Part shown: positions 25,198 through 38,761 of the stretch, one piece after another | Layout of the letters: each line of letters opens with the position of its first letter | Position numbering within the stretch: position 1 is the first letter of the stretch | NCBI RefSeq assembly: GCF_017565305.1 | Contig: NZ_JAGEKP010000007.1 | Location: 186,001-250,000, forward strand | DNA: 64,000 bases | Direction: 5' to 3' | From: Leifsonia sp. TF02-11 | Lineage (GTDB): Bacteria; Actinomycetota; Actinomycetes; Actinomycetales; Microbacteriaceae | Position numbers and translations under genes: made by a program | The notes under the pieces: generated by a model | Told to the model about the DNA's origin: nothing | Seen by the model: the letters and a program-made list of their open reading frames with translations, nothing else | The model's database searches: none

Positions 25198-25898
25198 GTT
25201 CGTGGCATGACCGCCTCGCCTCGACGACGCTGGTGCATGAACTCGCGGCGGACGCGTGGGTACGGAGGGATGCTCTTGCCGTTATCGCGATCGTCGTATC
25301 GGCCGTCGCGCTGATCGTGTCGGCGATCAACGTCTGGATCAACATTCAGAACCGTCGGGCTAGCGCGGCTGCGGGTTCCTGCTCTGAACGCCAGGTGCGG
25401 CCGCAAAGGAACTCTTCGGCGAGGATGCGGTTGCAGCACTCGCTCTTTCCATTTTGCCGCTTTGGCCGTGGCTTGCGACATCGTCACTTTGATGTAGGTT
25501 CCGAATTCGATCCCCCGAGGCCAGATGCCGCCGCTGCTCGACGGCGGCTTGGGCATTGTGACCAGTGACAGGCTCGGGCTGGCATCGACAGTCTGTTGGA
25601 TCTGTTCGTCCGTCCATCCCTCAGCGTTGAGCTGCTGGGCAGAATTGCTGCCGTCGCTTAGAGACAGGTCAGAACGGTGCCAGGGGCTCAGGCACATTTC
25701 CGGCCAAAAACGCATCTGCCAGGGCGACAGCCGATGGACCATGCATCCGGGGAACCTGCAACGGGATTGCGACTGCTTCGCCCGGCAGCGCACCAAACGC
25801 GGCAATGCCGCGCCGCCCGATCGCAATTCAACCCACGGCTGGTGTTTTTCCACTACTCCCGATCCCTATTCTGCAATCGACGACGGAGGTGGGTGCGC
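25198..25898. other. 700-bp stretch with only doubtful coding remnants
   Basis: On the plus strand, 25173-25568 includes one transmembrane-like segment (ALAVIAIVVSAVALIVSAIN) but only a TTG start and a frame that degenerates afterwards. On the minus strand around 25370-25690, LNAEGWTDEQIQQTVDASPS recalls the end region of CdiA/colicin-type RNase toxins, but no complete domain follows. Both may be decayed accessory genes. The ABC-transporter promoter probably lies at the right end. Confidence 0.4.
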
Positions 25899-26822
25899 AT
25901 GACGATCTCGATCGAGGGGCTGAGCAAGAGGTATGGCGGGCGGTACGCCATCCGAGACGTCTCATTCGAGGTCCATCCGGGGATAGTGACTGGTTTCCTC
26001 GGTCCGAACGGCGCGGGCAAATCGACCACCCTGCGCTCGATCGTCGGTCTCGATCGTCCGACGGCCGGACGGGCGTTGATCGATGGGACGCCGTATCGCA
26101 AACTGAGGGCACCACTCCTGGAAGTCGGCACGCTGCTTGACGGCGGGTCCGCACACAAGGCCCGAACGGCAGTCGACCATCTGCGTTGGATCGCGGCGAC
26201 CCACGGGATCGGACGACGACGGGTGGGCGAGGTGATGGAGCTGGCCGGGCTTGGCAGCGTCGCGCGTCGGCGCGTCGGCGGATTCTCGCTCGGGATGACC
26301 CAGCGCCTTGGCATCGCGGTCGCGCTTCTCGGAGACCCCCACACGCTCATCCTGGATGAACCGGTGAACGGGCTCGATCCCGACGGGGTGACCTGGTTGC
26401 GTGGACTGCTCGCGGGATTCGCCGCCTCCGGCGGTACGGTCTTCCTCTCGTCCCATCTTCTCGGCGAGCTATCGCTCATCGCCCAGCACATCGTGGTGAT
26501 CGGCCGGGGGCAGATCATCGCGGACAAGCCGCTCAGCGAGCTGGTCAGCCCGCGGCCGATCGTGCACGTGCGCACGCCGTCCCTCCCCGAACTGACACTG
26601 CTCCTGGCTGGTGAAGGGGTCACTGTCGCGAACGTCGCCGCGGGCACGGCGGAGTTGGAGGGGATCAGCGCAGAGGCGGTGGCCGAACGCGCCGCCTCTG
26701 CTGGGATCGTCCTCTATGAGCTGCGCAATGCGACCACGCAGCTCGAGGACGCGTACAACATGTTGACCCGCGACGCTGTTGAGTACGGGATGCCCGACCG
26801 GCCGGGACCTACAGAGGCATGA
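25899..26822 (+). CDS. ABC transporter ATP-binding protein (BcrA/antibiotic-export type)
   Basis: 307 residues from ATG 25899 (Shine-Dalgarno GGAGGT). It shows Walker A GPNGAGKST at 35-43, signature region FSLGMTQRLG, Walker B LILDEP and the switch His in FLSSHLL, followed by a C-terminal extension. The arrangement with two ABC-2-like permeases downstream matches DrrA/BcrA/LanF-type exporters that expel peptides or drugs. It overlaps the first permease by 4 nt. It lies ~5 kb from the lasso/SDP genes and could serve their export or immunity (inference). Confidence 0.9.
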   Translation: MTISIEGLSKRYGGRYAIRDVSFEVHPGIVTGFLGPNGAGKSTTLRSIVGLDRPTAGRALIDGTPYRKLRAPLLEVGTLLDGGSAHKARTAVDHLRWIAATHGIGRRRVGEVMELAGLGSVARRRVGGFSLGMTQRLGIAVALLGDPHTLILDEPVNGLDPDGVTWLRGLLAGFAASGGTVFLSSHLLGELSLIAQHIVVIGRGQIIADKPLSELVSPRPIVHVRTPSLPELTLLLAGEGVTVANVAAGTAELEGISAEAVAERAASAGIVLYELRNATTQLEDAYNMLTRDAVEYGMPDRPGPTEA

Positions 26823-27619
26823 TCGCGGACGTCTCTTCCCTCGGGCGCGTGCGCGGGGGCCGCGTCACTCTCGGGCGCGTCGTGATCGCGGAATGGATCA
26901 AGTTCCTGACCATCCCATCGAATCCGATCTGCCTCGGCGTTGCGTTTGTCGCCCTCGCCGGCTTCGGGCCTGCGGCGGCTTTGTCGCGGGCACTGTCCGG
27001 CGAAGGCGCGGCGCGCCCCTTCGGCACGGGCGACGCCCTCGTGTCCGTGCAGGGTGTACAGCTGCTCGTCGCCGTCGTCGGCGCGGTCTATTTCGCCTCC
27101 GAATTCCTCTACGGAGGCATCCGTCCTAGCGTGCTAGCGGTACCCGGACGTCTCCAGCTGGTGGTGGCCAAGGCGTTCGTCCTCGTAGCGGCGGTCTTCG
27201 TGATCGGAGCGGCAGGAGCGCTCGTGACCCTGTCGATCGTCCCGCTCGCGCTGGGCGCAGATGCGTCGTTCGATCTGCCGCCGCGTCTAGCGGCGCGCCT
27301 CGTGATCGGAACGGGACTCGAGCTCGCCGCCATCGGCATGCTCGCCCTCGGGATCGGCGGCCTGGTCCGGTCCGTCACCGGCTCCGTGGTGGCGGTGCTG
27401 GCACTGCTCGGATTCGCACCGTTCGCCCTCGCCGTCGTCCCGGTGGCCTGGCTGCAGAACCTGGCGGTCTGGCTCCCGAGCGCCGCCGGGCTGGCCGTGT
27501 TGCAAGGTGAAGGAGGCGCTAAGTCCGTCGGCCCCTGGGAGGGACTCGGGGTCTCGTTCTGCTGGGCGGTGGCGGCGCTGGTTCTGGCAGCGGTCACGCT
27601 GGTGCGCCGGGATGCGTGA
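26819..27619 (+). CDS. ABC-2 type permease subunit 1
   Basis: 266 residues with about six transmembrane helices, beginning after an IAEWIKFLTIPSNPI segment typical of ABC-2 permeases (EWxKxxxxxS). The ATG overlaps the ATPase stop (ATGA). It is the membrane partner of the upstream ATPase. Confidence 0.85.
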   Translation: MIADVSSLGRVRGGRVTLGRVVIAEWIKFLTIPSNPICLGVAFVALAGFGPAAALSRALSGEGAARPFGTGDALVSVQGVQLLVAVVGAVYFASEFLYGGIRPSVLAVPGRLQLVVAKAFVLVAAVFVIGAAGALVTLSIVPLALGADASFDLPPRLAARLVIGTGLELAAIGMLALGIGGLVRSVTGSVVAVLALLGFAPFALAVVPVAWLQNLAVWLPSAAGLAVLQGEGGAKSVGPWEGLGVSFCWAVAALVLAAVTLVRRDA

Positions 27620-27638: not shown

Positions 27639-28439
27639 ATGACAGCAGCGCGGACGAACGCGTTGTCGCGGTCGACGGGACTGATCTCATCGGAGTGGCT
27701 CAAGTTCTGGACGATCCGCTCGAACATCGTCCTCGTGGCCGTGTGCACGGTCTGGGCGCCGGCGAGCGCGTCGCTGTCGTCGAGCGCGCTGGCCCAGCGC
27801 GCGACCGACAGCGATCTCGGTCGGCGCAGCGCCGTGGTCACCGCGTATACCTTTCTGGACTCCATCTTGTGGCTTCAGCTCTTGCTTGTGGTCGTCGCCG
27901 TCCTGTTCGCCACCTCGGAGTACTCCAGCAGGCAGATCCGCGTGACGCTCCTGGCGGTTCCGGCCCGCGCCCCGGTGCCGGTGGCGAAGGCGATCGTCAT
28001 CGGTGTTGTGGCCTTCCTCATCGGTGTCGTGGGCGCTGGATCCGCGCAGGCACTTCCCGCCGCGCTCCTCGTCGGTAGCACGGTCGAATACGATTCGAGC
28101 CTCGGCCAAGGGGTGGCGTTCGCACTCGCGGCAGGACTCTACCTCGCGGCGATCTCCATCGTGACGCTCTCCATAGGAGTCCTGGTGAAGAACGCCGTCG
28201 TGGGCATCCTCATCCCTCTCGCACTGTTCACGATCGTCCCGGCGATGCTCGGATCGACCGGAGTCGCCGCCCTCGACCGCGCTGCCGGATTCTTCCCCAC
28301 CATTGCAGGGCGGGTTCTCATCTCCACGTTCGCGAATCCGGCCGGCCTCAGTCACCTGGCCGGGATGGCGGTCCTCTGTGGATGGGCCGTGCTCGGTCTC
28401 GCCGGAGCCGCCCTCGTGTACAGATTCCGCGACGCCTGA
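27639..28439 (+). CDS. ABC-2 type permease subunit 2
   Basis: 266 residues from ATG 27639 (GAGGT 8 nt upstream); ATG 27612 in the same frame overlaps the previous stop and is an alternative. It has the same SSEWLKFWTIRSNI opening and six-helix layout as the first permease, so the two are paralogous halves of one exporter channel. Confidence 0.85.
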   Translation: MTAARTNALSRSTGLISSEWLKFWTIRSNIVLVAVCTVWAPASASLSSSALAQRATDSDLGRRSAVVTAYTFLDSILWLQLLLVVVAVLFATSEYSSRQIRVTLLAVPARAPVPVAKAIVIGVVAFLIGVVGAGSAQALPAALLVGSTVEYDSSLGQGVAFALAAGLYLAAISIVTLSIGVLVKNAVVGILIPLALFTIVPAMLGSTGVAALDRAAGFFPTIAGRVLISTFANPAGLSHLAGMAVLCGWAVLGLAGAALVYRFRDA

Positions 28440-28527
28440 CCTGACTATGCCTCCCAGCGCCGATCACGGAAGAATGGGGATCAGGCTCGGGGAAGAGCCG
28501 CAGACGTGGACGCAGGGAGGGGCGGAC

Positions 28528-29742
28528 ATGACCTCGCGCATCACCGCGGCGGACCTGAACGACCGGTGGCCGGCAGCGCGCCGCCTGCTTGCCGGGCACC
28601 GTCGTACGGTCGACGCATGCCTCGCCGTCCTGTTCGCCGGGGTGCCCATCGTGGCTGCGGCCGTACTCGCCTCCCCGGGATGGCCTGCCACACTCGCCGC
28701 CCTCGCACTCGCGGGCGGCGCGCTGTTCTGGCGCCGCGGGCACCCACTCGTCGTCGTGGCGGTCGTCGCGGCGCTCACCGTCGCACCCGCTCCGTCGTAT
28801 CTGGTCGTGCCCCTCGCGCTCGCTGTTTACACTGCGGCCGTCGAAACTCCGCCCTTGCGTGCCCTGCTCGGCTACGGGATGGCCGTCGTCGTTCCGATCG
28901 TGATCACAACCGGGAAGCACCTGCTCGGACTGCCGGCGAACACGGCACCGATTGCGCCGAATCCGATCACTCTTGGGGCGAATGTGGTGGAGCCCCTGCT
29001 CGTAGTCGCCCTGGTCGCCGGGCTCATCGTGCGGGCCGCGGCGGTGCACCGCTCCGATCTGGCCGCACTGCTCAACCAGCGGATCGACAACGCGACCGTT
29101 CTCGAGCGCAACCGCATCACCGGCGAGATGCACGACGTGGTGGGACACTCGCTGACCGTCATGATCGCGCTGGCGAATGGTGCTGCCGCGAGCTGGGAGA
29201 AGCACCCCGAGGAGTCAGCGGTCGCGGTGCGGCGCGTGGCAGAGGTCGGCCAGTCCGCCCTTCTCGACCTGCAGCGCACGCTCAGGATGCTCCGGGAAGC
29301 CGACCGGTCGCTGGACGAGACGCTCGACGATTCGGGAGTGGCCGCGCCACCACTCGAGCATCTCATCGAACTCTTCCGCGATGCTGGTCTGCCTGTCCGG
29401 CTCGTCCGCCGTGGTCCCGCGCTCCCCGACGATGCGCTGCTCTGCAACGCGGTCCATCGGATCGTCCGGGAGGCGCTGACCAACGCGCTCCGGTACGCGG
29501 CCGAGCCGACCCTTGTGGAAGTCTCGATCGAGCGTACCGGCGACGACGTCGTGATCCGCGTCGTCGACGACGGTGACGGACGCGCCACGCCGTCGCGCGG
29601 CACGGGGAGCGGCCTTCTGGGCATCCGGGAGCGTGCCAACGCCCTGTCCGGCACCTCCGGCGCGGGCCGCAGGGACGGAGGAGGCTGGGAGACGTGGGCG
29701 GTCCTCCCGGTCGGGAACGCAGCAGGCGGTGGACATGGCTGA
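28528..29742 (+). CDS. Sensor histidine kinase (NarL/LiaS-type, HisKA_3)
   Basis: 404 residues. Six short transmembrane segments occupy residues 30-175, with almost no extracellular domain, as in intramembrane-sensing kinases of antibiotic-response systems. The phospho-accepting His is H202 in EMHDVVGHSL (HisKA_3), followed by an N-box REALTNALRYA and a G-box (DDGDGRATPSRGTGSGLLGIRERA). GGGAGGGG precedes ATG 28528. The stop overlaps the response-regulator start. With the ABC exporter upstream it resembles a peptide-sensing/detoxification module. Confidence 0.9.
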   Translation: MTSRITAADLNDRWPAARRLLAGHRRTVDACLAVLFAGVPIVAAAVLASPGWPATLAALALAGGALFWRRGHPLVVVAVVAALTVAPAPSYLVVPLALAVYTAAVETPPLRALLGYGMAVVVPIVITTGKHLLGLPANTAPIAPNPITLGANVVEPLLVVALVAGLIVRAAAVHRSDLAALLNQRIDNATVLERNRITGEMHDVVGHSLTVMIALANGAAASWEKHPEESAVAVRRVAEVGQSALLDLQRTLRMLREADRSLDETLDDSGVAAPPLEHLIELFRDAGLPVRLVRRGPALPDDALLCNAVHRIVREALTNALRYAAEPTLVEVSIERTGDDVVIRVVDDGDGRATPSRGTGSGLLGIRERANALSGTSGAGRRDGGGWETWAVLPVGNAAGGGHG

Positions 29743-30516: not shown

Positions 30517-30891
30517 ATGGTCGGGGTCGTCGTGGGGTCGCTGCTCATCATCGTGGTGAGCGCACTGGTGCTATGGTGGGCCTCTGCAAGCAAGCGGGGC
30601 ACGCTGCGCCGGAATCACATCCTGGGCTACCGCACGCGGTTCACGCTGAGCGACGACGACGTGTGGGTGACGGTGAACCGGGCGATCGCCCCTTTCCTGT
30701 TCATCGCGGGCATCGGCGCGATCTTCGGGGCGGTCGTGGCGCTGGTGGTCGGCTTGATCGGCGCGCCCGAGGCGGGTGCGATCGTGATCGTGGTGAGCGT
30801 CGCCTGGATCTTCGTGTGGCTTGTCCTGACGCTCATCCCCGCCCACGCACGCGCTCGCGCCCTCAAACAGCGCACGGCGACGGCCCGCTGA
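30517..30891 (+). CDS. SdpI-family immunity-like membrane protein
   Basis: 124 residues from ATG 30517 (Shine-Dalgarno GGAAGGGGG). Three transmembrane helices lie near 1-20, 53-80 and 84-106. Between helix 1 and helix 2 is GYRTRFTLSDDDVWVTVNR, the hallmark of the SdpI domain (GYRT...S...W...N). In Bacillus, SdpI protects the producer from SDP toxin. An SdpC-SdpA-SdpB set lies 6 kb away in the same island, so an immunity role is a strong inference. The stop and the next start overlap (TGATG). Confidence 0.75.
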   Translation: MVGVVVGSLLIIVVSALVLWWASASKRGTLRRNHILGYRTRFTLSDDDVWVTVNRAIAPFLFIAGIGAIFGAVVALVVGLIGAPEAGAIVIVVSVAWIFVWLVLTLIPAHARARALKQRTATAR

Positions 30892-31880
30892 TGCGCACGC
30901 TCACGCTGCCTGCCCAGGAGGCCGGCACCAGCACGGACCGTGGTTTCGACCGCTACTTGGGACCTGCGTCGTCTCGGTACTTCGGGAGCGGATATCGCAA
31001 GGTGGCCTACGGGATCGATCGAATCGGCATCCACCCAGGACGGAGCGCTCTTTCGGCGGTGGGCTCCGTCGGCTATCCGGTGGACTGGTCCGTCAAAGAC
31101 GGGCGTCAGTCGCGAGCGCACCTGAGCACCATCGACGGGGTGACCCTCGCCCTCGTCCTCTCGCACATGCTCGACGCCGAAGCCAACGACGGGACGCGCT
31201 CACTCGCCCGGTCTATCGAGGTGAGGGCGGGGGCGAAGGCGATGACGGAGCTCCACGCCGTGCCGCTCTCCCTCCGACGGGCAGTGGGCGACTCCGCCGT
31301 CGAAACCCAGGACGGGCCGACCTTCACCAGCAGGATCGGCACCCTCTCGGTGACGATCGGGACGTGGGCGACGTCCGGCCCGCGCGTCGGCGTGCAGGCG
31401 CACGGCCCGGCACCCTCGCACCTGGCTTTCACCGGGGATCACGCGCACGCAACGGACTATGTGTCGGAGCTGGTCGCTCAGCCTTCCCACAGGTCGTCTG
31501 CGAGCTTCGACCATTGGGCTTCGGCACGCGCGGACACTGCAGGCGAACATCCCGTCGGCGAGTATGCGGCCCGGTTCGTCGACCCACTGGTCCTCGCCGG
31601 CCAGATGGCCGAAGTCCTGCTGTACTCCCGGGCAGGAGTTGACCGCGCGTCAACCGGCAACCTGTGGATGCGGAGGGCGGCCGTGCAGTTGTCCTCCCGG
31701 TCGGCGGAGTCGCCATCGTTCTGCCACGCCACCATCCGCGTGACCAAGGAACTCACGATCGAGCGAAACGGCCGGCGACTCCAGTGCGTCGATATCCTCG
31801 TCGATGATCTGTTCGGCACCCGGATCGCCGCATCCCTGGCGTACGAGGTCGCAACGACTCAGCCGCGGGTGGTCGGCTGA
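30891..31880 (+). CDS. AvrD-family protein (syringolide-type signal synthase)
   Basis: 329 residues. The N-terminal half carries the AvrD signature: DRYLGPASSRYFGSGYRKV, then GYPVDWSVKD and HLSTIDGVTLAL. In Pseudomonas syringae AvrD is needed for syringolides, small lactone-containing signals built from a beta-ketoacyl chain and a pentulose. The next genes encode a gamma-butyrolactone-receptor-like TetR protein and an epimerase, so it probably makes a diffusible autoregulator. It is translationally coupled to the SdpI gene. The 3' end overlaps the convergent TetR gene by 22 bp. Confidence 0.8.
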   Translation: MRTLTLPAQEAGTSTDRGFDRYLGPASSRYFGSGYRKVAYGIDRIGIHPGRSALSAVGSVGYPVDWSVKDGRQSRAHLSTIDGVTLALVLSHMLDAEANDGTRSLARSIEVRAGAKAMTELHAVPLSLRRAVGDSAVETQDGPTFTSRIGTLSVTIGTWATSGPRVGVQAHGPAPSHLAFTGDHAHATDYVSELVAQPSHRSSASFDHWASARADTAGEHPVGEYAARFVDPLVLAGQMAEVLLYSRAGVDRASTGNLWMRRAAVQLSSRSAESPSFCHATIRVTKELTIERNGRRLQCVDILVDDLFGTRIAASLAYEVATTQPRVVG

Positions 31881-32524
31881 GGCACCCGGAACACGGATTC
31901 GACGACGGAGAGGAGCCGCGGCTGGTGCTCGGGGACAACCGAAGCGGTGATGATCACCCGCCACATCACGTCGAGGACGGAGTAAAGGTCCTGCCGGCCG
32001 TTGAGCACGTTCGCGACGAGATGCACGCCCGAGAAGTAGGGGACGAGCGTCCGGCCCAGCTCCTGGGGTGTGAACGCGGAATTCAGAGTCCCATTCTCGT
32101 CCGCGCGGGCGAAGAGGGCGCTCACCGACCCGATCCACTCCTCGTAATAGCCGGCGGTGGGCGCCGAGAGCGTCCCCTCCTCCAGCGACAGGCGCATCCC
32201 GGCGCGCACCACCGGGTCCGTCAGGATGTGCGCCGCGATCGCCCGCGACCCTTCGATCAGTGCTTCGAGGGGACGCTCGTCGATAGCCTCCGGCGGGATG
32301 GCGTCGAATGTGCGGGCGTTTTGTTCAGCGATGATCGCGAGCGCAAGGTCGTCCTTGGAGGGAAAGTAGAAATACATCGAGCCGGAAGTGGAGCCGGACT
32401 CCCGCGAGATGTCGGAGAGCGACGCCTGGGCGAAGCCGACCCGGTCGAAGACCCTGGCCGCTCCTTCGAGGACCGCCAGGCGGCGGGCATAGCCGCGAGG
32501 CTGTTGTGGCTGGCGTGCAGGCAT
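31859..32524 (-). CDS. TetR-family regulator, gamma-butyrolactone-receptor (ScbR/ArpA) type
   Basis: 221 residues from ATG 32524 (GAGGAG about 10 nt upstream); ATG 32557 is a longer alternative. The HTH spans about residues 15-55: AARVFDRVGFAQASLSDISR...TSGSMYFYFPSKDDLALAII. The ligand domain has the ScbR-type PVVRAGMRLSLEEGT and FSGVHLVANVLNGRQDL segments. Such receptors repress antibiotic genes until a butyrolactone-like signal binds. Its location between an AvrD gene and an epimerase, next to the toxin operon, suggests it controls that operon. Confidence 0.82.
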   Translation of the reverse strand: MPARQPQQPRGYARRLAVLEGAARVFDRVGFAQASLSDISRESGSTSGSMYFYFPSKDDLALAIIAEQNARTFDAIPPEAIDERPLEALIEGSRAIAAHILTDPVVRAGMRLSLEEGTLSAPTAGYYEEWIGSVSALFARADENGTLNSAFTPQELGRTLVPYFSGVHLVANVLNGRQDLYSVLDVMWRVIITASVVPEHQPRLLSVVESVFRVPQPTTRG

Positions 32525-32586
32525 CGGGGGACACTCCTCGCGACGGGGGACGACCATCGTACCGTCAGCGCTCAGGAGCAGCCGAG

Positions 32587-33540
32587 ATGACGGGCGGGAA
32601 AGTCTTCCTCACGGGGGCGGACGGATTCATCGGCTCGGCGATCGCCCGGGCGCTGGGCGAACACAGAGTCGACATGGTCCGGCACGTGCGGCCGGGACGG
32701 AGGGAGCCCTCTTCGCCGCTGCCTGGGAGCAAGGCCCCGGCCGACCTGGCGCACGCGGGCGAGCTGGCGCAGGCGATGCGCGGCGCGCGCATCATCATCC
32801 ATGCCGCCGCTCACGTCGGCGTGGATCCGGTACTGCAGCGCGAGGTGAATGTCGAGGGGACGAGGAACATGGTGGCTGCCGCGCAGGCGGTCGGGGCGGG
32901 ACGGCTGATCTACCTGAGCACTACCGGCGTCTACGGCGGTCAGTCGCTGCACGGTGAGACGGAGGAACAGGCAGTGGCGCGTCCCGTCTCGACACTCAGT
33001 CGTAGCCGGTACGAAGCCGAGAGGATCGTTCTCGACGCCGGCGGCACAGTGGTGCGCCCGAACCTCGTTTTCGGCACAGGCGATCGATGGTTCCTGGGCC
33101 CCCTCATCCGGCTGATGATGTTCGTCGGTGGATGGATCGGCGATGGCGATGCGCGCGTGTCGACGATCGAACGCCTGGAGCTCGGGCGTCTGGTGGCGAG
33201 GCTGGCGCTCGCCGAACATCCCGCGGGCGTTTACCACGCAGCCGCTCCGGCACCCGTGCCCGTCCGCTCCCTGGTTGCACCGGTTCTTGCACGACTGGGG
33301 ATGCCCGCGCTTCGGACGACGGTCGCCGTCGAGCGGGCGATCTCCCAAGCTGCCCCGCTCGGTGTGAGCCCGCGTCAGATCGCGATGGTGGCCGTCGACA
33401 ACTGGCTGAACGTCACGAAGATCTGGCACGCAGCGGGTGGCGTCGCCCTCCCGGCGACCGTTAGCGACACGATCGCCGACTGGTATGCCGAGCAGCTCAC
33501 ACAGCCCGGGCCAGGCCGGCGGGAACCCGCATCGTCGTGA
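32587..33540 (+). CDS. NAD-dependent epimerase/dehydratase (extended SDR)
   Basis: 317 residues from ATG 32587, divergent from the TetR gene with a 62-bp shared regulatory gap. It has an N-terminal Rossmann motif TGADGFIGSAIARAL and the Ser/Thr and Tyr of the SDR site (YLSTTGVYGG and SRSRYEAER). The usual YxxxK is YEAER, with Arg in place of Lys, so catalysis may be altered. Placed beside AvrD and a butyrolactone-type receptor, it is likely a tailoring enzyme of the signal molecule. The 3' end overlaps lasso gene B2 by 44 bp on opposite strands. Confidence 0.78.
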   Translation: MTGGKVFLTGADGFIGSAIARALGEHRVDMVRHVRPGRREPSSPLPGSKAPADLAHAGELAQAMRGARIIIHAAAHVGVDPVLQREVNVEGTRNMVAAAQAVGAGRLIYLSTTGVYGGQSLHGETEEQAVARPVSTLSRSRYEAERIVLDAGGTVVRPNLVFGTGDRWFLGPLIRLMMFVGGWIGDGDARVSTIERLELGRLVARLALAEHPAGVYHAAAPAPVPVRSLVAPVLARLGMPALRTTVAVERAISQAAPLGVSPRQIAMVAVDNWLNVTKIWHAAGGVALPATVSDTIADWYAEQLTQPGPGRREPASS

Positions 33541-33931
33541 CGAAGCCGGCTGCCAGCCCGGACGGCTCACGTACCGGCACGCCGTCCACCTCCACCCAGG
33601 CGTGGGCGCGGAACGGATTCGTCGCGGCGCCCGCACACCAGTCCGGCCACGCACCGTGCAACCGGCAGACCAGTGCCACCGCGAGCGATCGCTGCAGACA
33701 GTAGCGTCCCGCGCAGCGAGAGCTCACCGTGACCACGGCGTCGAGCGAGTGCTCCACGAGCTCGCGACTTGCGGGGTGAGAGCGGCGCGCGAGTCGCGCG
33801 AGCAGGCCCTCGAGGTGGGCGGGGCGCAAGCGCGCGAGCCCGAAAGCGAACGGCACGATCAGCGATGCCAGGATGCGCGAGCGGGCCGGTACCGGGGCCG
33901 TTGCGCTCATCCCGATCAGTGCGTCGCTCAC
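33497..33931 (-). CDS. lasB2: Lasso peptide leader peptidase B2 (transglutaminase-like)
   Basis: 144 residues. The catalytic Cys (C78 in GRYCLQRSLAVAL) and His (H110 in FRAHAWVEVDG) of the lasso B2/transglutaminase-like protease family are present, with D116 as a candidate third residue. It removes the leader of the lasso precursor together with B1. The ATG overlaps the B1 stop (ATGA). It is the last gene of the reverse-strand operon. Confidence 0.92.
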   Translation of the reverse strand: MSDALIGMSATAPVPARSRILASLIVPFAFGLARLRPAHLEGLLARLARRSHPASRELVEHSLDAVVTVSSRCAGRYCLQRSLAVALVCRLHGAWPDWCAGAATNPFRAHAWVEVDGVPVREPSGLAAGFVTTMRVPAGLARAV

Positions 33932-34206
33932 CGTGCGACGATCCCTACCTCGCGGAGCTGCGCGACGAGGGCGTCGACGTCCGATCGGACGATCGCGAGG
34001 TCGGCCGCTTCGTATCGACCGGTGATCGCATGGGCGATCTCGTCCCGAGTGAGGCCGTCGATCAGGCCCTCGATGACATCCGCCGCGGAGGAGTTCACCT
34101 GGCTGTAGGCGCCGGAGCGCTTGTCGAGGACGATCCCGCCGTCGGGTGTGCGGCGGAAGACGACCCCCGCCCGGATACGGTCGGTCGTGGTCTCTGCGTC
34201 TGTCAT
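33928..34206 (-). CDS. lasB1: Lasso peptide RRE protein B1 (PqqD family)
   Basis: 92 residues. A PqqD-like RiPP recognition element binds the precursor leader (YxxPxIxxVGxF motif) and presents it to B2. The fold is visible as beta strands around GVVFRRTPDGGIVLDKRSGAYSQVN, followed by helices with SAADVIEGLIDGLTRDEIAHAI. It overlaps both neighbours by 4 nt, so B1, B2 and C are produced together. Confidence 0.9.
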   Translation of the reverse strand: MTDAETTTDRIRAGVVFRRTPDGGIVLDKRSGAYSQVNSSAADVIEGLIDGLTRDEIAHAITGRYEAADLAIVRSDVDALVAQLREVGIVAR

Positions 34207-36008
34207 GGTCTCTCCAGGAGGCTTTGCGCGGTCGCTGCTCGCAACCAGCGATCCGCGGCGAGGTGGAATTCGAAGGGATAGAACCGCGACGCGTCGGGTT
34301 GTATCCGGGTGAGGAAATCGGTGACGGCGTCTCCGCGCACGAGTCCGCGCGTCACAAGGGGCGAGTGGTCGACATCAGCGGCGATGTCCCTGCGGACCCG
34401 GTTGTAGCCGTCGTAGATGAGTGAGACGTAGTCGCCTTTGGACTTCCGTCCGAGCAATTCATCCGGAACGACGCCACGCGACGCAGCGGCGAGGACAGGT
34501 TTGAACGAGGTCGTGTTGAGACGATCGCTCAGCCGGACGCTGAGCGACAGTTCGACGATCCTGTCATCGAGGAAGGGCGCCTCGTACCTCACCCCCTCAG
34601 CGCGAAACTCCGCATCCAGTGCGCGGTGGATCTGCCCGTTGCGTCCGATCATCGCGAAAGACACCGCATCCGCCTCGGCGAGGGCGCGCGGGAGCGCGGA
34701 CACGTCGATTCCCTCGAGCAGCCCGTGCACCTGGAGGGAAGCCAAGGGTGTGGCCCACGGCGAGAGTGAGAACGGGACATCCCATCCTGCCGAAGGACGC
34801 GGAGGCTCTGGCAGGTGAACGTGCGCGACTCGGTCGCGGACCCACCGCGTGTGCGAGCGCCGGACCAGCGCTTGCCGGACGGTGCGAGCGCGGGGCCAGC
34901 GATGCACCGAGGCCATCCCCATCGCCGCGGGGATGGCAGTCGCCGGCTCCTCGCGCATGAGGCCGGGAAGGATTGATTCGTCCGGATAGTACAGCTCGTC
35001 GCCGCCGGAGCCCGCGATGTGCAGTCGGCTGCCCTCGCGGCGGAGCACTGTAGCCATCGCACGGTGCATGCCCTCGGTTCGGATGGACGGCGACGGCTCG
35101 TCGGCGAACTCAGGTGTCGCGCTGTCCCAGGTCGCGAACCAGTGGTCCAGAGACCCGGGGGCGAGTTCGATCAGGTCGGAGCCCATGAGGGCGCCGGCCT
35201 GCCTCGCCCAGCGGACATCCTCGTTCAGTGCGTCGTCGACCGTCAGATGCGTCGCGACCAATGTCTCGACGTGCTGCTTCGTGAAGAACGCGAGAGAGGT
35301 GGAGTCCATCCCTCCGGAGAGATCGGAGCTGACGCGTCCGTCCGCGGAGCGGGCGCGCGCGGCGACGGCGGCATGCAAGGCTTCCTTGAGGAGCGGGGCG
35401 ACGACATCGAGGGGCAGGCGCTCGGTCGGGAAGCGCCAGCGTTCGCCGCGTTCGGCGCGGTGACGTGAGGCCGGGAACGAGAGGTATTCGGTCGGCAGTA
35501 GATTCTCGAGGCCGTGCCAGTACGACGGCTCTGACAGCGGCCACGGCGGACGCGGCACCAGAAGTGACAGGGCGAGGGCGTCCTCACGGAGCGGAGCGGT
35601 CACCAGCTCGCGAAGCAGTCCGATGCTGTTGGACGCGCCCAAGGCCCGCTCGCCCGTCGAATAGGAGACGCGGCGGAAACTGGACAACGAACCCCAGATC
35701 CGCGTCTCCGAGGAATCGGAGTACACGACGAAGTAGGAGCCGCTGATCGTCGCATGGATCCCGTGCAGAGCGTCCGGCTGAGCCGCCCGCTCAAGGACGG
35801 CGCGGAGCTGACCGGAATCCGCGCCGAACGTCCCGATCAGGCTGAGGCGACGGTCGCCCGTGGTGACCGTCAGGAATTCCTCCGGGAGCCAGTCGCCCAC
35901 GATGTGCGGTCGCCCTGAAGGATGCAGGATCCGCTCGGCCACCGGCGACAGCGCCGTCTGGTCGAGCGGCAACGCGCCGGCATGGTCCGGCAGCACGATG
36001 AACCTCAT
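34203..36008 (-). CDS. lasC: Lasso cyclase C (asparagine-synthetase-like)
   Basis: 601 residues. It has an N-terminal glutaminase-like domain without the catalytic Cys, then an asparagine-synthase domain with the PP-loop SGGMDSTS near residue 231. Lasso cyclases adenylate the side chain of the ring Asp/Glu and close the macrolactam with the core N-terminus while threading the tail. It lies downstream of precursor 1 behind a strong hairpin, and overlaps B1 by 4 nt. Confidence 0.93.
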   Translation of the reverse strand: MRFIVLPDHAGALPLDQTALSPVAERILHPSGRPHIVGDWLPEEFLTVTTGDRRLSLIGTFGADSGQLRAVLERAAQPDALHGIHATISGSYFVVYSDSSETRIWGSLSSFRRVSYSTGERALGASNSIGLLRELVTAPLREDALALSLLVPRPPWPLSEPSYWHGLENLLPTEYLSFPASRHRAERGERWRFPTERLPLDVVAPLLKEALHAAVAARARSADGRVSSDLSGGMDSTSLAFFTKQHVETLVATHLTVDDALNEDVRWARQAGALMGSDLIELAPGSLDHWFATWDSATPEFADEPSPSIRTEGMHRAMATVLRREGSRLHIAGSGGDELYYPDESILPGLMREEPATAIPAAMGMASVHRWPRARTVRQALVRRSHTRWVRDRVAHVHLPEPPRPSAGWDVPFSLSPWATPLASLQVHGLLEGIDVSALPRALAEADAVSFAMIGRNGQIHRALDAEFRAEGVRYEAPFLDDRIVELSLSVRLSDRLNTTSFKPVLAAASRGVVPDELLGRKSKGDYVSLIYDGYNRVRRDIAADVDHSPLVTRGLVRGDAVTDFLTRIQPDASRFYPFEFHLAADRWLRAATAQSLLERP

Positions 36009-36034
36009 CGAAGTCGTTCCCTTCGTCGGGTCGC

Positions 36035-36071
36035 GGTGGGGCGCCGGCCTGCCTAGCCCGTGCGCCCCACC
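36035..36071 (-). terminator. Attenuator hairpin between lasso precursor 1 and cyclase
   Basis: A perfect 10-bp stem, GGTGGGGCGC/GCGCCCCACC (36035-36044 with 36062-36071), with a 17-nt loop. It sits 15 nt after the precursor stop and ahead of lasC. It would make the precursor message more abundant than the enzyme message, as in other lasso operons. Confidence 0.7.
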
Positions 36072-36086
36072 TCGAGCTCTTCTAGA

Positions 36087-36197
36087 TCAGAACCACCAGC
36101 CGAGCACGTCGGTCCAGTAACCCTTCGACGTGAACGCGGTGTCCTTGGCGAATGTCCCGACACTGATGATCTGCGGGGTCTCGTAAGCGGCGCTCAT
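36087..36197 (-). CDS. lasA1: Lasso peptide precursor 1
   Basis: 36 codons. A leader of 21 residues carries the RRE-binding motif YETPQIISVGTF and the conserved Thr at position -2 (DTA before the core). The predicted core is FTSKGYWTDVLGWWF: Phe1 to Asp9 gives a 9-residue ring, and the tail VLGWWF has bulky Trp13, Trp14 and Phe15 that can lock the thread. No Cys is present, so it is class II. A strong Shine-Dalgarno (AGGAGGT, 36204-36210) precedes the ATG. It lies directly after sdpB and before lasC. It is nearly a twin of precursor 2 and was found by reading the short gap. Confidence 0.92.
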   Translation of the reverse strand: MSAAYETPQIISVGTFAKDTAFTSKGYWTDVLGWWF

Positions 36198-36231
36198 GGT
36201 CTCACCTCCTCCCTAACCTTGACGGAGCTCC

Positions 36232-37164
36232 TCACGACGAGGAGGCTTCAAGCTCCGTGACGTCGTCGTCGACGGCGCCCGGAGAGTCGGGAGGCGGATC
36301 GGTTTCGCGGCGGGTCGGGGTGCCCGAACGGACCGTGGCGATGATCACGAGGCCGATCATGACGAGGCCGAAGCTCCACAGCCCGATCGTCACGATGATG
36401 CCGACATGCAGGAGGATCGAGAGGACGAGTGCGACAGAGCGCCCGCGGTCGCGGCCGACCATGATCAGCACGCCGATCGATATCTCGAGGGCCATCGCAC
36501 CCCACGTCGCGAGGGCCACGATGACCGGCGAGGAGGTGAAGAACAGGCCGATGCTCCGCACGACGCCGGAGGCGCCGAATGTCGAGTCCCGGAGCACGTA
36601 GTACTCCGCGGTTCCGGTCAGCCACTTGTCGCTGGCCACTTTCGCGATGCCGGAGTCGATGTAGATGATCGCCGCTTGGAGGCGGACCGCCCAGATGGTC
36701 GCGAAGGCGATGCCCTGACGGATCGGGCCGAGCGGGGCCTCGTGGCGCCAGGCCCAGAGCCGGCGGTCGGTGAGGCAGTACGGGATGAGCAGCAGCGTCA
36801 CGATCCGCGCGGCGATGTCGCCGCCGTCCGGTAGGGCGATGCTCACGCTGAGCGAGAAGGACACCCACGCGTGTACCATCCCGGATGGTCCGGGCAAGAA
36901 CCCGCTCGCTACGAGGATCAGGAGAGCGAACATGAGCCAGTGCGCCAGTGCGGGATTCCCCGAGAGCGCTGGGACGCAGTACAGCGAGATCGCCTTCACG
37001 CCGTCGCAGTATGGTGCGGGCTGCTGACCGATCACGGGAACGAGCAATGCCTGAGGCGTCGTGAAGAGGAGGTACGTCGCCTGACCGATGGCGATGACCG
37101 AGCGGCCGACGCCGATTCCGAGCTGTTGCGGGTCGAACCGTTGGACGTAGTCATTCAGCCGCAT
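36232..37164 (-). CDS. sdpB: SdpB-like membrane protein (HTTM family)
   Basis: 310 residues with about seven transmembrane helices; the APYCDGVKAISLYC segment and the RLQAAIIYIDSGIAKVASDKWLTGTAEYYVL region are characteristic of SdpB/HTTM proteins, which are related to vitamin-K-dependent gamma-carboxylases. In Bacillus, SdpA and SdpB are both needed to turn pro-SdpC into mature SDP toxin. The start overlaps the sdpA stop by 14 bp. It has an acidic, Pro-rich cytoplasmic tail. A possible extra role in modifying the lasso peptides is open. Confidence 0.82.
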   Translation of the reverse strand: MRLNDYVQRFDPQQLGIGVGRSVIAIGQATYLLFTTPQALLVPVIGQQPAPYCDGVKAISLYCVPALSGNPALAHWLMFALLILVASGFLPGPSGMVHAWVSFSLSVSIALPDGGDIAARIVTLLLIPYCLTDRRLWAWRHEAPLGPIRQGIAFATIWAVRLQAAIIYIDSGIAKVASDKWLTGTAEYYVLRDSTFGASGVVRSIGLFFTSSPVIVALATWGAMALEISIGVLIMVGRDRGRSVALVLSILLHVGIIVTIGLWSFGLVMIGLVIIATVRSGTPTRRETDPPPDSPGAVDDDVTELEASSS

Positions 37165-37756
37165 GGGTGCTCCCGCCTCCGTTCGCGCAGTGGACGTCGA
37201 GCAGCACGTACTTGTCGACGAGATAGGTGGGCACGTCAGAGAACCCGCGATAGCTCCACGGCGACTGGTGCTGCTGCGTGATCACGACCTCGCCGCACAC
37301 TGTCGGCACCGGGCTCTGGTTGCTGATGGCCAGGGCGCGGTGGGCGGTCGAGATGCACGCGCTCGTCTGGTCGGTGCAGTCGATCCAGTCGGACTCGGCG
37401 ACGCCGGCAGCGAGGAAGGCGAGTTCCGGGCCTTGGGCGCGCTGGGCGCGCGACAGACCCCAGAAGTTCTGCGCCTTCGTCTGAGGCGTGGCCACGATGT
37501 CCGTCAGCGATTCGTTGCCTTCAATCTGATACACGCCGAGCTGCGCCGACTGCGGGTCCTTGGTGAAGAAGTTCCAGCCCTGCTGGATGAAGGTCCCGTA
37601 CCCCTGGCGCACCGCGTTGGAGACATCCGCTGTCACAACCGTCGGCGGTATGGAGAGGAGCACCGAAACGAGCAGTGCTCCGCCCAGCACTGCCCCAGTC
37701 GTCGAGAATGCGATCGACGCGGCATGCCTGCGGATCCATCGCCACGCTTGTTCCAC
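37151..37756 (-). CDS. sdpA: SdpA-like toxin maturation protein
   Basis: 201 residues from GTG 37756 (Shine-Dalgarno GGAGGGGGG upstream). An N-terminal signal-anchor helix (about 14-36) precedes an extracytoplasmic domain with the SdpA feature QQGWNFFTKDPQSAQLGVYQ. Four Cys follow (DCTDQTSAC, TVCGE, VHCAN), possibly in two disulfides. Its position between sdpC and sdpB reproduces the Bacillus set, though the gene order here is C-A-B. Confidence 0.8.
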   Translation of the reverse strand: MEQAWRWIRRHAASIAFSTTGAVLGGALLVSVLLSIPPTVVTADVSNAVRQGYGTFIQQGWNFFTKDPQSAQLGVYQIEGNESLTDIVATPQTKAQNFWGLSRAQRAQGPELAFLAAGVAESDWIDCTDQTSACISTAHRALAISNQSPVPTVCGEVVITQQHQSPWSYRGFSDVPTYLVDKYVLLDVHCANGGGSTHAAE

Positions 37757-37778
37757 TGTTACCCCCCCTCCTGCGGCG

Positions 37779-37812
37779 CGTGGGACCGGGAGTCTCCGCT
37801 CCCGGTCCCACG
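37779..37812 (-). terminator. Strong hairpin between sdpC and sdpA
   Basis: A perfect 14-bp stem, CGTGGGACCGGGAG/CTCCCGGTCCCACG (37779-37792 with 37799-37812), with a 6-nt loop, starts 5 nt after the sdpC stop. It probably attenuates transcription into sdpAB or protects the sdpC message. Confidence 0.75.
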
Positions 37813-37817
37813 GCTCA

Positions 37818-38441
37818 TCAGAGCGCCGACGCGATCGACGCTGCAGCCTGCTGCTTCGTCAGATCGGTGGGTGCGCTCGCCCCGGCTGCGCGGGGGGTGT
37901 TGTGCACGTAGGTCACGTTGGTCGTCGAGACGACCACCACAACCAGCGCGGCGCCCGCCACCACGGCGGCACCGACCACGAAGACCACGCCGAGCACGAC
38001 GCAGTCCGTGTGCACACCGGTGTCCGGCGTGGACCCCGTGCTCTTGGCGAGCGTGAGGATGGTGCGGTTGTACGCGTCGATCGCACGCTCCACCTTCAGC
38101 GGGTTGCCGCTCTGAAGCGGAACCGTGACGTGATCATGGAATGCGGGATCGATCGCCGTGACTTTCGACAGGAGCTGTGCGACCTGCGCAGCGGTGTGTC
38201 TCTTCTCCGGGGCGTCGTAGCCGAGCGAGTGGATGAGGCCCGGGTGATCGGCCTCAATCCGCCCGGAGCCGAGTGCGAGGAATTCGACAGCATCGGTGTC
38301 GCTGTATGCGCGTGCCGACGCGGTCGCGTGCGAGGCATGCGACGAGTCAGTGGCGGCCATCGCGGGCGCTGCCGTGAGGCCGCCTCCCGCGAGTAGCAGG
38401 GCCGCCGCACTGACCAGGGCGATTGTGCGTTTATGAGCCAT
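37818..38441 (-). CDS. sdpC: SdpC-family secreted peptide toxin precursor
   Basis: 207 residues from ATG 38441 (AAGGA upstream). A Sec signal peptide ends near APAMA (residue 29). The pro-region has YSDTDAVEFLALGSGRIEADHPGL, matching the start of SdpC proteins, then a helical segment. A very hydrophobic stretch follows (about 147-172) in the place of the mature SDP toxin, which in Bacillus collapses the membrane potential. Here only one Cys (C147) is in that stretch, so the disulfide of Bacillus SDP is absent. It is the first gene of the sdpCAB set, right after lasso precursor 2. Confidence 0.8.
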   Translation of the reverse strand: MAHKRTIALVSAAALLLAGGGLTAAPAMAATDSSHASHATASARAYSDTDAVEFLALGSGRIEADHPGLIHSLGYDAPEKRHTAAQVAQLLSKVTAIDPAFHDHVTVPLQSGNPLKVERAIDAYNRTILTLAKSTGSTPDTGVHTDCVVLGVVFVVGAAVVAGAALVVVVVSTTNVTYVHNTPRAAGASAPTDLTKQQAAASIASAL

Positions 38442-38473
38442 TTCAGTCCTTCGTTCAGGGTGTTCTGGTGAAG

Positions 38474-38492
38474 GGCCGGGCACCGCCCGGCC
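38474..38492 (-). terminator. Hairpin between lasso precursor 2 and sdpC
   Basis: A perfect 8-bp GGCCGGGC/GCCCGGCC stem with a 3-nt loop (38474-38481 with 38485-38492), 18 nt after the precursor stop. It probably attenuates read-through from precursor 2 into sdpC. Confidence 0.65.
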
Positions 38493-38510
38493 GAGAAAGG
38501 TCGATTCTGA

Positions 38511-38621
38511 TCAGAACCACCAGCCGAGGACGTCGATCCAGTTGCCGTAGTGCGTGAACGCGGTGTCGCGTGCGAAATCGCCGACGGTGGCGATCTCGGG
38601 CTTCTCGTAAGCGCGGACCAT
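38511..38621 (-). CDS. lasA2: Lasso peptide precursor 2
   Basis: 36 codons, same length as precursor 1. The leader has YEKPEIATVGDF and Thr at -2 (DTA). The predicted core is FTHYGNWIDVLGWWF, again a Phe1-Asp9 nine-residue ring with a VLGWWF tail. It differs from core 1 at positions 3, 4, 6 and 8, all inside the ring. A GGAGGG Shine-Dalgarno precedes the ATG. It is the first gene of the operon, 2.3 kb from precursor 1. B1, B2 and C exist as single copies and must serve both. Confidence 0.92.
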   Translation of the reverse strand: MVRAYEKPEIATVGDFARDTAFTHYGNWIDVLGWWF

Positions 38622-38733
38622 TGAACTCACCCCCCTCCGAGTTCGGGGCAAGCGCGTTCTCGGTGGAAGAGGAGCCCTGATCGGGTGTCTCAGCCAAAGG
38701 TGCCGCCCCTCGGCACCGTGCTTGCGGGAACAA

Positions 38734-38761
38734 TGTATAGGGCGCTCAACTTAGTTTGCAA
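38734..38761 (-). promoter_or_regulatory. Candidate promoter of the lasso/SDP operon
   Basis: On the reverse strand a -35-like TTGCAA (38756-38761) and a -10-like TATACA (38734-38739) are 16 bp apart, ~113 bp before lasA2. The -35 region overlaps an imperfect palindrome, CAAACTAAGTTG (38747-38758), a possible operator for the TetR protein. The stretch is clearly AT-richer than its surroundings. Confidence 0.5.

What the first reader, a model, noticed from the sequence alone, without database searches (positions are those of the whole stretch)
33497..38761. Composite operon: two lasso precursors around a complete SDP-toxin set
On one strand the order is lasA2-sdpC-sdpA-sdpB-lasA1-lasC-lasB1-lasB2. 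Seen directly: two 36-codon precursors with lasso leader motifs, lasso enzymes B1, B2 and C, and proteins matching SdpC, SdpA and SdpB, all co-directional with short gaps or overlaps. Lasso clusters and sdp operons are each known, but I know of no description of one nested in the other. Possible meanings: co-regulated dual toxins, SdpA/B acting on the lasso peptides, or the lasso peptide helping SDP act.
Basis: partly seen in the sequence, partly recalled or inferred. Interest (0 to 1): 0.95.

Follow-up and report, generated by a model that had tools for sequence, protein, structure and literature searches.

The report
Lasso-peptide and SDP-toxin genes interleaved
In at least three genera of actinobacteria, the genes for two unrelated kinds of antimicrobial peptide (an SDP-type toxin and two lasso peptides) are interleaved in one gene cluster that has evolved as a single unit, so these bacteria likely make and use both together.

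Summary
On the minus strand lasA2-sdpC-sdpA-sdpB-lasA1-lasC-lasB1-lasB2 (38621 down to 33497) are co-directional, with gaps of at most 78 bases. Profiles confirm SdpA, SdpB, LasB1, LasB2 and both lasso leaders. SdpC and LasC match their families below the curated cut-offs. All 14 genes, in one order on one strand, lie in Plantibacter sp. VKM Ac-1784 and two Microbacterium genomes at 31-68% protein identity to the window. In trees, SdpB and LasC of the composites each form one group with compatible branching: the systems joined once and diversified together. It is rare: 2 of 25 sampled SdpA-bearing genomes, 1 of 28 genomes of the own genus. Most likely it is a dual-class antibiotic cluster under shared control, with SdpI and the ABC set for protection or export. 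Products, threading, synergy and regulation are untested. The lasA1 core is almost frozen, which suggests a fixed target or a signal. The paper searches found no description.

The parts
38511..38621 (-). lasA2, lasso precursor of 36 aa; predicted 15-residue core, ring residue 1 to Asp 9
   Evidence: (NF033521 22.0, cut-off 19)
37818..38441 (-). sdpC, secreted pro-toxin of the SDP family; signal-peptide-like start, hydrophobic C-terminal stretch, one Cys (position 147)
   Evidence: (TIGR04032 82.4 bits, cut-off 99.2)
37151..37756 (-). sdpA, SDP maturation protein
   Evidence: PF17418 E 3e-37; TIGR04034
36232..37164 (-). sdpB, multi-pass SDP maturation protein (HTTM family)
   Evidence: TIGR04033 208 bits, cut-off 178; PF05090
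36087..36197 (-). lasA1, lasso precursor of 36 aa; core almost invariant in the four composites read
   Evidence: (NF033521 24.5, cut-off 19)
36009..36086 (-). lasA1-lasC intergenic hairpin with 10-base-pair arms, present at the same place in all four composites read
34203..36008 (-). lasC, macrolactam synthetase of the asparagine-synthase family
   Evidence: PF00733; NF033561 205 bits, below its cut-off 300
33928..34206 (-). lasB1, leader-recognition protein (PqqD/RRE)
   Evidence: NF033530 70.2 bits, cut-off 70
33497..33931 (-). lasB2, transglutaminase-like leader peptidase
   Evidence: NF033537 90.6 bits, cut-off 33
30517..30891 (+). sdpI, predicted immunity protein; only PF13630 match found in the genome
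29573..30412 (+). response regulator, receiver plus LuxR-type helix-turn-helix (first codon uncertain)
   Evidence: 60-63% identical to the regulator before sdpI in the other three clusters
28303..29742 (+). histidine kinase, HisKA_3 and HATPase_c (first codon uncertain)
   Evidence: 44% identical to the Plantibacter kinase over 304 aa
27507..28439 (+). second transporter membrane protein (inferred from its Plantibacter counterpart and position; no Pfam match; first codon uncertain)
26819..27619 (+). first transporter membrane protein (inferred; no Pfam match)
25677..26822 (+). ABC transporter ATPase (first codon uncertain)
   Evidence: (PF00005 E 3.6e-24)

Best explanation
The window holds a 14-gene set, found in the same interleaved order in Plantibacter and two Microbacterium genomes, that is predicted to make an SDP-type membrane toxin and two 15-residue lasso peptides together, likely switched on by one histidine kinase and regulator and likely made safe for the producer by SdpI and an ABC transporter. 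Shown by sequence: the genes, their order, short gaps, recurrence, agreeing trees and purifying selection. Inferred: one transcript for the eight biosynthetic genes in the window; maturation of SdpC by SdpA and SdpB to a hydrophobic peptide that collapses the membrane potential (as recalled for Bacillus subtilis SDP); closure of a ring from residue 1 to Asp 9 of each lasso core by LasB1, LasB2 and LasC; different targets for the two classes, so that they back each other up; the lasA1-lasC hairpin setting precursor above enzyme by protecting or pausing the message.
For: Gene content by profiles. Same 14 genes on one strand in L017 (Plantibacter), L046 and L047 (Microbacterium). The same lineages recur on contigs of identical length for LasC, LasA and SdpB: 6470, 13375, 17448 and 44254 bases. 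The composite SdpB and LasC each fall on one side of a supported branch, 95 and 100, with compatible inner branching. Interleaving of the two systems is hard to explain by one passive insertion. dN/dS is under 0.67 wherever it could be computed; for one lasA1 pair dS was zero. The hairpin pairs in 40 of 40 cells, with changes on both sides at 3 of 10 pairs. No terminator-like site above chance inside the operon. Other lasso clusters of the family also carry an ABC gene and mostly a related regulator (L048, L049, L053, L054), so those parts fit a peptide-antibiotic role.
Against: No expression, product or activity data. SdpC of all four composites scores below the family cut-off (69-82 against 99 bits), LasC too (194 and 205 against 300, two tested). 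In the window the transporter, kinase, regulator and sdpI lie on the opposite strand from the biosynthetic operon, with three extra genes between, so shared control is less direct there than in the other three. No promoter-like site was found at consensus level (the scan suits high-GC actinobacteria poorly), and no 9-base word is shared between the regions before sdpI and lasA2. One Microbacterium copy (L046) has sdpA split over two frames. All tested composites share one ancestry, so their agreement is one event, not many. The near-invariant lasA1 core is unlike an arms-race toxin.
Confidence: 0.62

Rival explanations
1. One or both lasso peptides are not weapons but the signal or helper of the system: the lasA1 product would be sensed by the kinase or would guide or stabilise the SDP peptide.
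For: The lasA1 core differs at only 5.6% of nonsynonymous sites between the window and the other three, against 37% for lasC and 38-41% for sdpC, and not at all between Plantibacter and Microbacterium. A kinase-regulator pair is part of the set in all four.
Against: Only 15 codons are compared, and synonymous change is also low in the core (pS 0.11 between Plantibacter and Microbacterium), so part of the conservation may lie at the DNA or RNA level. The N-terminal 80 residues of the Plantibacter kinase did not align to the window's, which does not fit a frozen ligand. Related regulators also stand beside lasso clusters with unrelated cores.
Confidence: 0.18
2. Neighbours only: two independent antibiotic systems collected in one defence island, each acting alone.
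For: Each half occurs alone elsewhere: 23 of 25 sampled SdpA loci have no lasso gene within about 1.5 kb, and 5 of 5 inspected distant lasC loci have no sdp gene at E <= 1e-3.
Against: The two sets alternate instead of sitting side by side, share one small transcription-unit layout, and have kept this through divergence to about 48% LasC identity.
Confidence: 0.15
3. SdpA and SdpB also process or export the lasso peptides, or the lasso enzymes modify SdpC.
For: Only the gene order: sdpA and sdpB lie between the two precursors.
Against: SdpA and SdpB occur with SdpC and no lasso genes in most loci; the lasso set B1, B2, C is complete; no lasso leader motif was found in SdpC by the motif scan of the loci.
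Confidence: 0.05

Closest known systems
Bacillus subtilis sdpABC-sdpRI (SDP cannibalism toxin) and its paralogue yitPOM (abstract of PMC6818787 seen)
   Same: SdpA, SdpB, an SdpC-like secreted pro-peptide and an SdpI-type protein
   Different: Order C-A-B instead of A-B-C; lasso genes interleaved; kinase, regulator and ABC genes instead of the SdpR repressor (recalled); one Cys in the predicted mature region, where B. subtilis SDP has two (recalled); SdpC below the family cut-off
Stand-alone actinobacterial sdpCAB-sdpI loci (for example L003, L012, L027)
   Same: Gene order sdpC-sdpA-sdpB; SdpI nearby in some
   Different: No lasso genes within about 1.5 kb, in four of them none within 20 kb; SdpB lies outside the composite group
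Actinobacterial class II-type lasso clusters with split B1/B2 (LasC family NF033561; propeptin-like core in L054, resemblance recalled)
   Same: Leader motif, LasB1, LasB2, LasC; ABC and regulator genes nearby in several
   Different: Two related precursors placed on either side of sdpCAB; cores of 15 residues starting with Phe or Leu and ending Gly-Trp-Trp-aromatic or Leu; LasC below the NF033561 cut-off and at most 36% identical to the nearest outside hits

Membership tests
Lasso peptide biosynthetic cluster | Precursor with lasso leader (Y-x-x-P, G-x-F, Thr before the core) | tested here: met
   NF033521 above cut-off for both window precursors and both Plantibacter ones; 17 invariant columns in 7 rows
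Lasso peptide biosynthetic cluster | Asp or Glu at core position 7-9 for the ring | tested here: met
   Asp 9 invariant in 7 of 7 aligned precursors, if the core starts one residue after the Thr-Ala end of the leader (core start inferred)
Lasso peptide biosynthetic cluster | LasB1 (RRE) and LasB2 (leader peptidase) | tested here: met
   Window: NF033530 70.2 of 70, NF033537 90.6 of 33. Plantibacter B1 scores 54.9, below 70; its B2 77.4
Lasso peptide biosynthetic cluster | LasC macrolactam synthetase | tested here: met
   PF00733 97.5 bits, SSDLSGGMDS motif (motif meaning recalled). The finer subfamily NF033561 is not reached: 205 of 300
Lasso peptide biosynthetic cluster | Threaded peptide product | not testable with these tools
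   Needs mass spectrometry and NMR
SDP system | SdpA and SdpB | tested here: met
   TIGR04034 126 of 53; TIGR04033 208 of 178
SDP system | SdpC above the curated family cut-off | tested here: not met
   TIGR04032 82.4 of 99.2 in the window, 71.8, 70.9 and 69.0 in the other three. Full-length match in the window, so it is filed as SdpC-like
SDP system | SdpI-type immunity protein | tested here: met
   PF13630 41.1 of 28.2 and 37.1-41.0 in the other three
SDP system | Two Cys in the mature toxin (disulfide; recalled from B. subtilis) | tested here: not met
   One Cys in SdpC of each composite. Stand-alone actinobacterial SdpCs vary too: two in L028 and L030, one in L008, none in several
SDP system | Membrane-depolarising, secreted peptide | not testable with these tools
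   Needs product and assay

The most novel reading that the evidence does not exclude
A bipartite antibiotic of a kind not described so far: a pore-type SDP peptide and lasso peptides that evolved into mutual dependence, the lasso peptide acting as docking partner, potentiator or signal of the SDP toxin, so that neither half is kept without the other in this lineage.
Probability: 0.27. Interest if true: 0.85.

Novelty: new variant of a known kind. Interest (0 to 1): 0.7.

Why it matters
Lasso peptides and SDP toxins are studied apart. A cluster that has kept both, interleaved, through long divergence is natural evidence for a useful pairing and names ready strains in which to test it. It also offers a family of very short lasso cores with a fixed Gly-Trp-Trp end, a divergent SdpC group, and a genome-mining rule: look for sdp genes between lasso precursors.

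Tried and rejected
Rejected: chance neighbours (same order in four genomes); recent import marked by base composition (GC of the region 0.67-0.70 lies inside the window's range 0.64-0.74); SdpC cysteine count as a mark of the composites (stand-alone ones vary); a conserved hairpin after lasA2 (fold z-scores -2.7, -1.5, 0.4, -1.3; not kept in L046). Led nowhere: SdpC in viral contigs (no relative); LasC and SdpB in plasmids (only matches under 60% identity; surroundings not inspected); SdpB in phages (none); solved structures (only chance-level; weak match of SdpB to vitamin K-dependent carboxylase, E 0.0016; none at 1e-10); shared operator words before sdpI and lasA2. The genome-contig scan used two weak patterns and returned two loci only, so it is no census. 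Structure prediction was not run. Paper searches: SdpC + lasso peptide 0; SdpC + SdpI + biosynthetic gene cluster 0; SdpB + lasso 0; sporulation delay + lasso peptide 3 held, 2 listed, of which PMC8183687 was opened at its one passage, on B. subtilis; some searches were judged from listings and opening lines of abstracts only. The library lacks most subscription papers and preprints.

Rows left out: the SdpB tree used 22 of the 36 proteins or their locus equivalents and 21 of the 23 non-composite loci; P0038, P0040 and P0041 (near the composite group, partial, surroundings unknown) were left out, as were near-duplicates and several short-contig proteins. The 14 protein rows called 'alone' there, and all 14 in the LasC tree, have no inspected surroundings. 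The LasC tree left out P0002, P0004 and P0005 (96, 100 and 91% identical to rows used); it warned that a long branch (P0020) meets the composite group. Both trees are the quick kind, unrooted. Six weak lasC matches (L040-L045, at most 25 bits) were not examined.

Full report
What is there. Profile searches confirm SdpA, SdpB, LasB1, LasB2 and both lasso leaders above curated cut-offs; SdpC matches its family over nearly the whole model but below the cut-off, and LasC matches the asparagine-synthase family well and its nearest lasso subfamily below the cut-off. Good ribosome-binding sequences precede both precursors (by eye).

On the plus strand, 30517-30891 encodes an SdpI-family protein, the only PF13630 match in this genome (99.99% complete). 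Before it lie an ABC ATPase, two presumed membrane partners without Pfam match, a HisKA_3 kinase and a LuxR-type regulator. Identity to the window runs from 31% (one membrane protein, LasB1) to 68% (ATPase). In the window the first six are on the other strand and three extra genes (AvrD family, ScbR-type TetR, epimerase) intervene.

How widespread. SdpA was sought in 398 genomes of the family (15 with a match), 396 of the order (11, of which 9 new) and 396 of the phylum (3, of which 1 new): 25 genomes in all, one of them (L016) a broken weak match. Lasso genes lie within about 1.5 kb in 2 of the 25, the window and Plantibacter; four of the other 23 were read over 20 kb and have none. LasC was sought in 28 genomes of the own genus (1 match, itself), 7 of the Plantibacter genus (1, the known one), 366 of the Microbacterium genus (10 at E <= 1e-3; two at 993-1002 bits, both composites; two at 142-171 bits without sdp; six at 25 bits or less not examined) and 399 of the family (4 at E <= 1e-20: the two composites and two distant ones without sdp). 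Of five distant lasC loci inspected (L023, L048, L049, L053, L054) none has an sdp gene at E <= 1e-3; L053 is only 7.9 kb long. The cluster is thus rare and patchy within genera, and flanks differ between the three genera while both Microbacterium copies stand near a leucyl-tRNA synthetase gene. This suggests transfer as a block (inferred).

More relatives by protein. The LasC search gave seven proteins at 44-93% identity and then a drop to 36%. The precursor search gave eight clusters, the window's own among them. The SdpB profile search gave a top group that includes contigs of 6470, 13375, 17448 and 44254 bases, the same lengths as for LasC and LasA hits. I take these as four further composites; their DNA was not read. 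In the Microbacterium MAG the tags K0R81_139 (SdpB) and K0R81_142 (lasA2) are neighbours in number.

One origin, shared history. In a tree of 43 SdpB rows the eight composites fall on one side of a branch with support 95; in a tree of 22 LasC rows with support 100. Inner branching is compatible: window with the 17448-base contig; Plantibacter with the two Microbacterium; the 6470 and 13375 contigs next to these; the 44254 contig apart. So the two gene sets came together once, as far as the data go, and have travelled together. Two of the branches inside are weakly resolved and the trees are unrooted quick trees.

Selection. For the four composites read, Nei-Gojobori comparisons of lasA1, lasA2, sdpC, sdpB and lasC (all four) and of lasB1, lasB2 and sdpI (three genomes) give dN/dS under 0.67 wherever it could be computed (sdpA not compared; one lasA1 pair had no synonymous change). 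The 15-residue lasA1 core stands out: pN 0.056 between the window and each of the others (lasC 0.37-0.38, sdpC 0.38-0.41, lasA2 core 0.28-0.29) and zero between Plantibacter and Microbacterium. Synonymous change is low there too, so the constraint may be partly in the nucleic acid.

Predicted products. If the conserved Thr is the last but one residue of the leader, the cores are F/L-T-x-x-G-x-W-x-D-(V/L)-L-G-W-W-(F/L/Y), 15 residues, closing from residue 1 to Asp 9, with a tail of six (one metagenome variant has I at position 10). That is near the lower size limit of known lasso peptides (recalled). SdpC has a signal-peptide-like start and a hydrophobic C-terminal stretch with one Cys.

RNA. 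Between lasA1 and lasC all four composites have a hairpin with 10-pair arms starting 21-24 bases from the end of lasA1 and ending 26-30 bases before the lasC start; 40 of 40 cells pair (one G-U), and pairs 8, 9 and 10 of 10 change on both sides (arms picked by eye from the folds, z-scores -3.8, -2.3, -3.6, -1.7). No T-run follows. It may hold the message of lasA1 above that of the enzymes (inferred).

Reading. The most economical account is a dual-class peptide antibiotic cluster with common control and self-protection. What the sequence cannot say is whether the two classes act side by side, potentiate each other, or whether the frozen lasA1 peptide is a signal. Each half works alone elsewhere, which argues against SdpAB being needed for lasso peptides in general. 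The strongest argument for a real functional bond is the interleaving kept across deep divergence, with no near-clade member seen that has lost one half; that last point rests on four read loci and four inferred ones, and three SdpB relatives (P0038, P0040, P0041) have unknown surroundings.

Print. None of the searches listed in Tried and rejected found lasso and sdp genes described together; the library lacks most subscription papers, so this is weak evidence of novelty.

Noticed in passing
window 30891-31880 (+), 31859-32557 (-), 32575-33540 (+): An AvrD-family gene (PF05655 E 3e-37) overlapping sdpI by one base, an ScbR-type autoregulator-receptor TetR gene (NF041196 154.9 of 150) and an NAD epimerase gene: looks like a small-molecule (butyrolactone-like) signalling set placed between sdpI and lasB2; no match to these three was found beside the other three composites.
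   Followed up: partly
L046 9377-9950: sdpA of one Microbacterium composite matches in two overlapping frames, a possible frameshift or draft error.
   Followed up: no
L054 around 8279 (+): A Microbacteriaceae lasso precursor whose core resembles propeptin (resemblance recalled), with lasC, lasB2, ABC and regulator genes and no sdp.
   Followed up: partly
window 38640-38760 (-): Before lasA2 an inverted repeat TGCTTGC ... GCAAGCA flanks an AT-rich stretch with TATACAT: a possible promoter and operator, seen by eye only.
   Followed up: no
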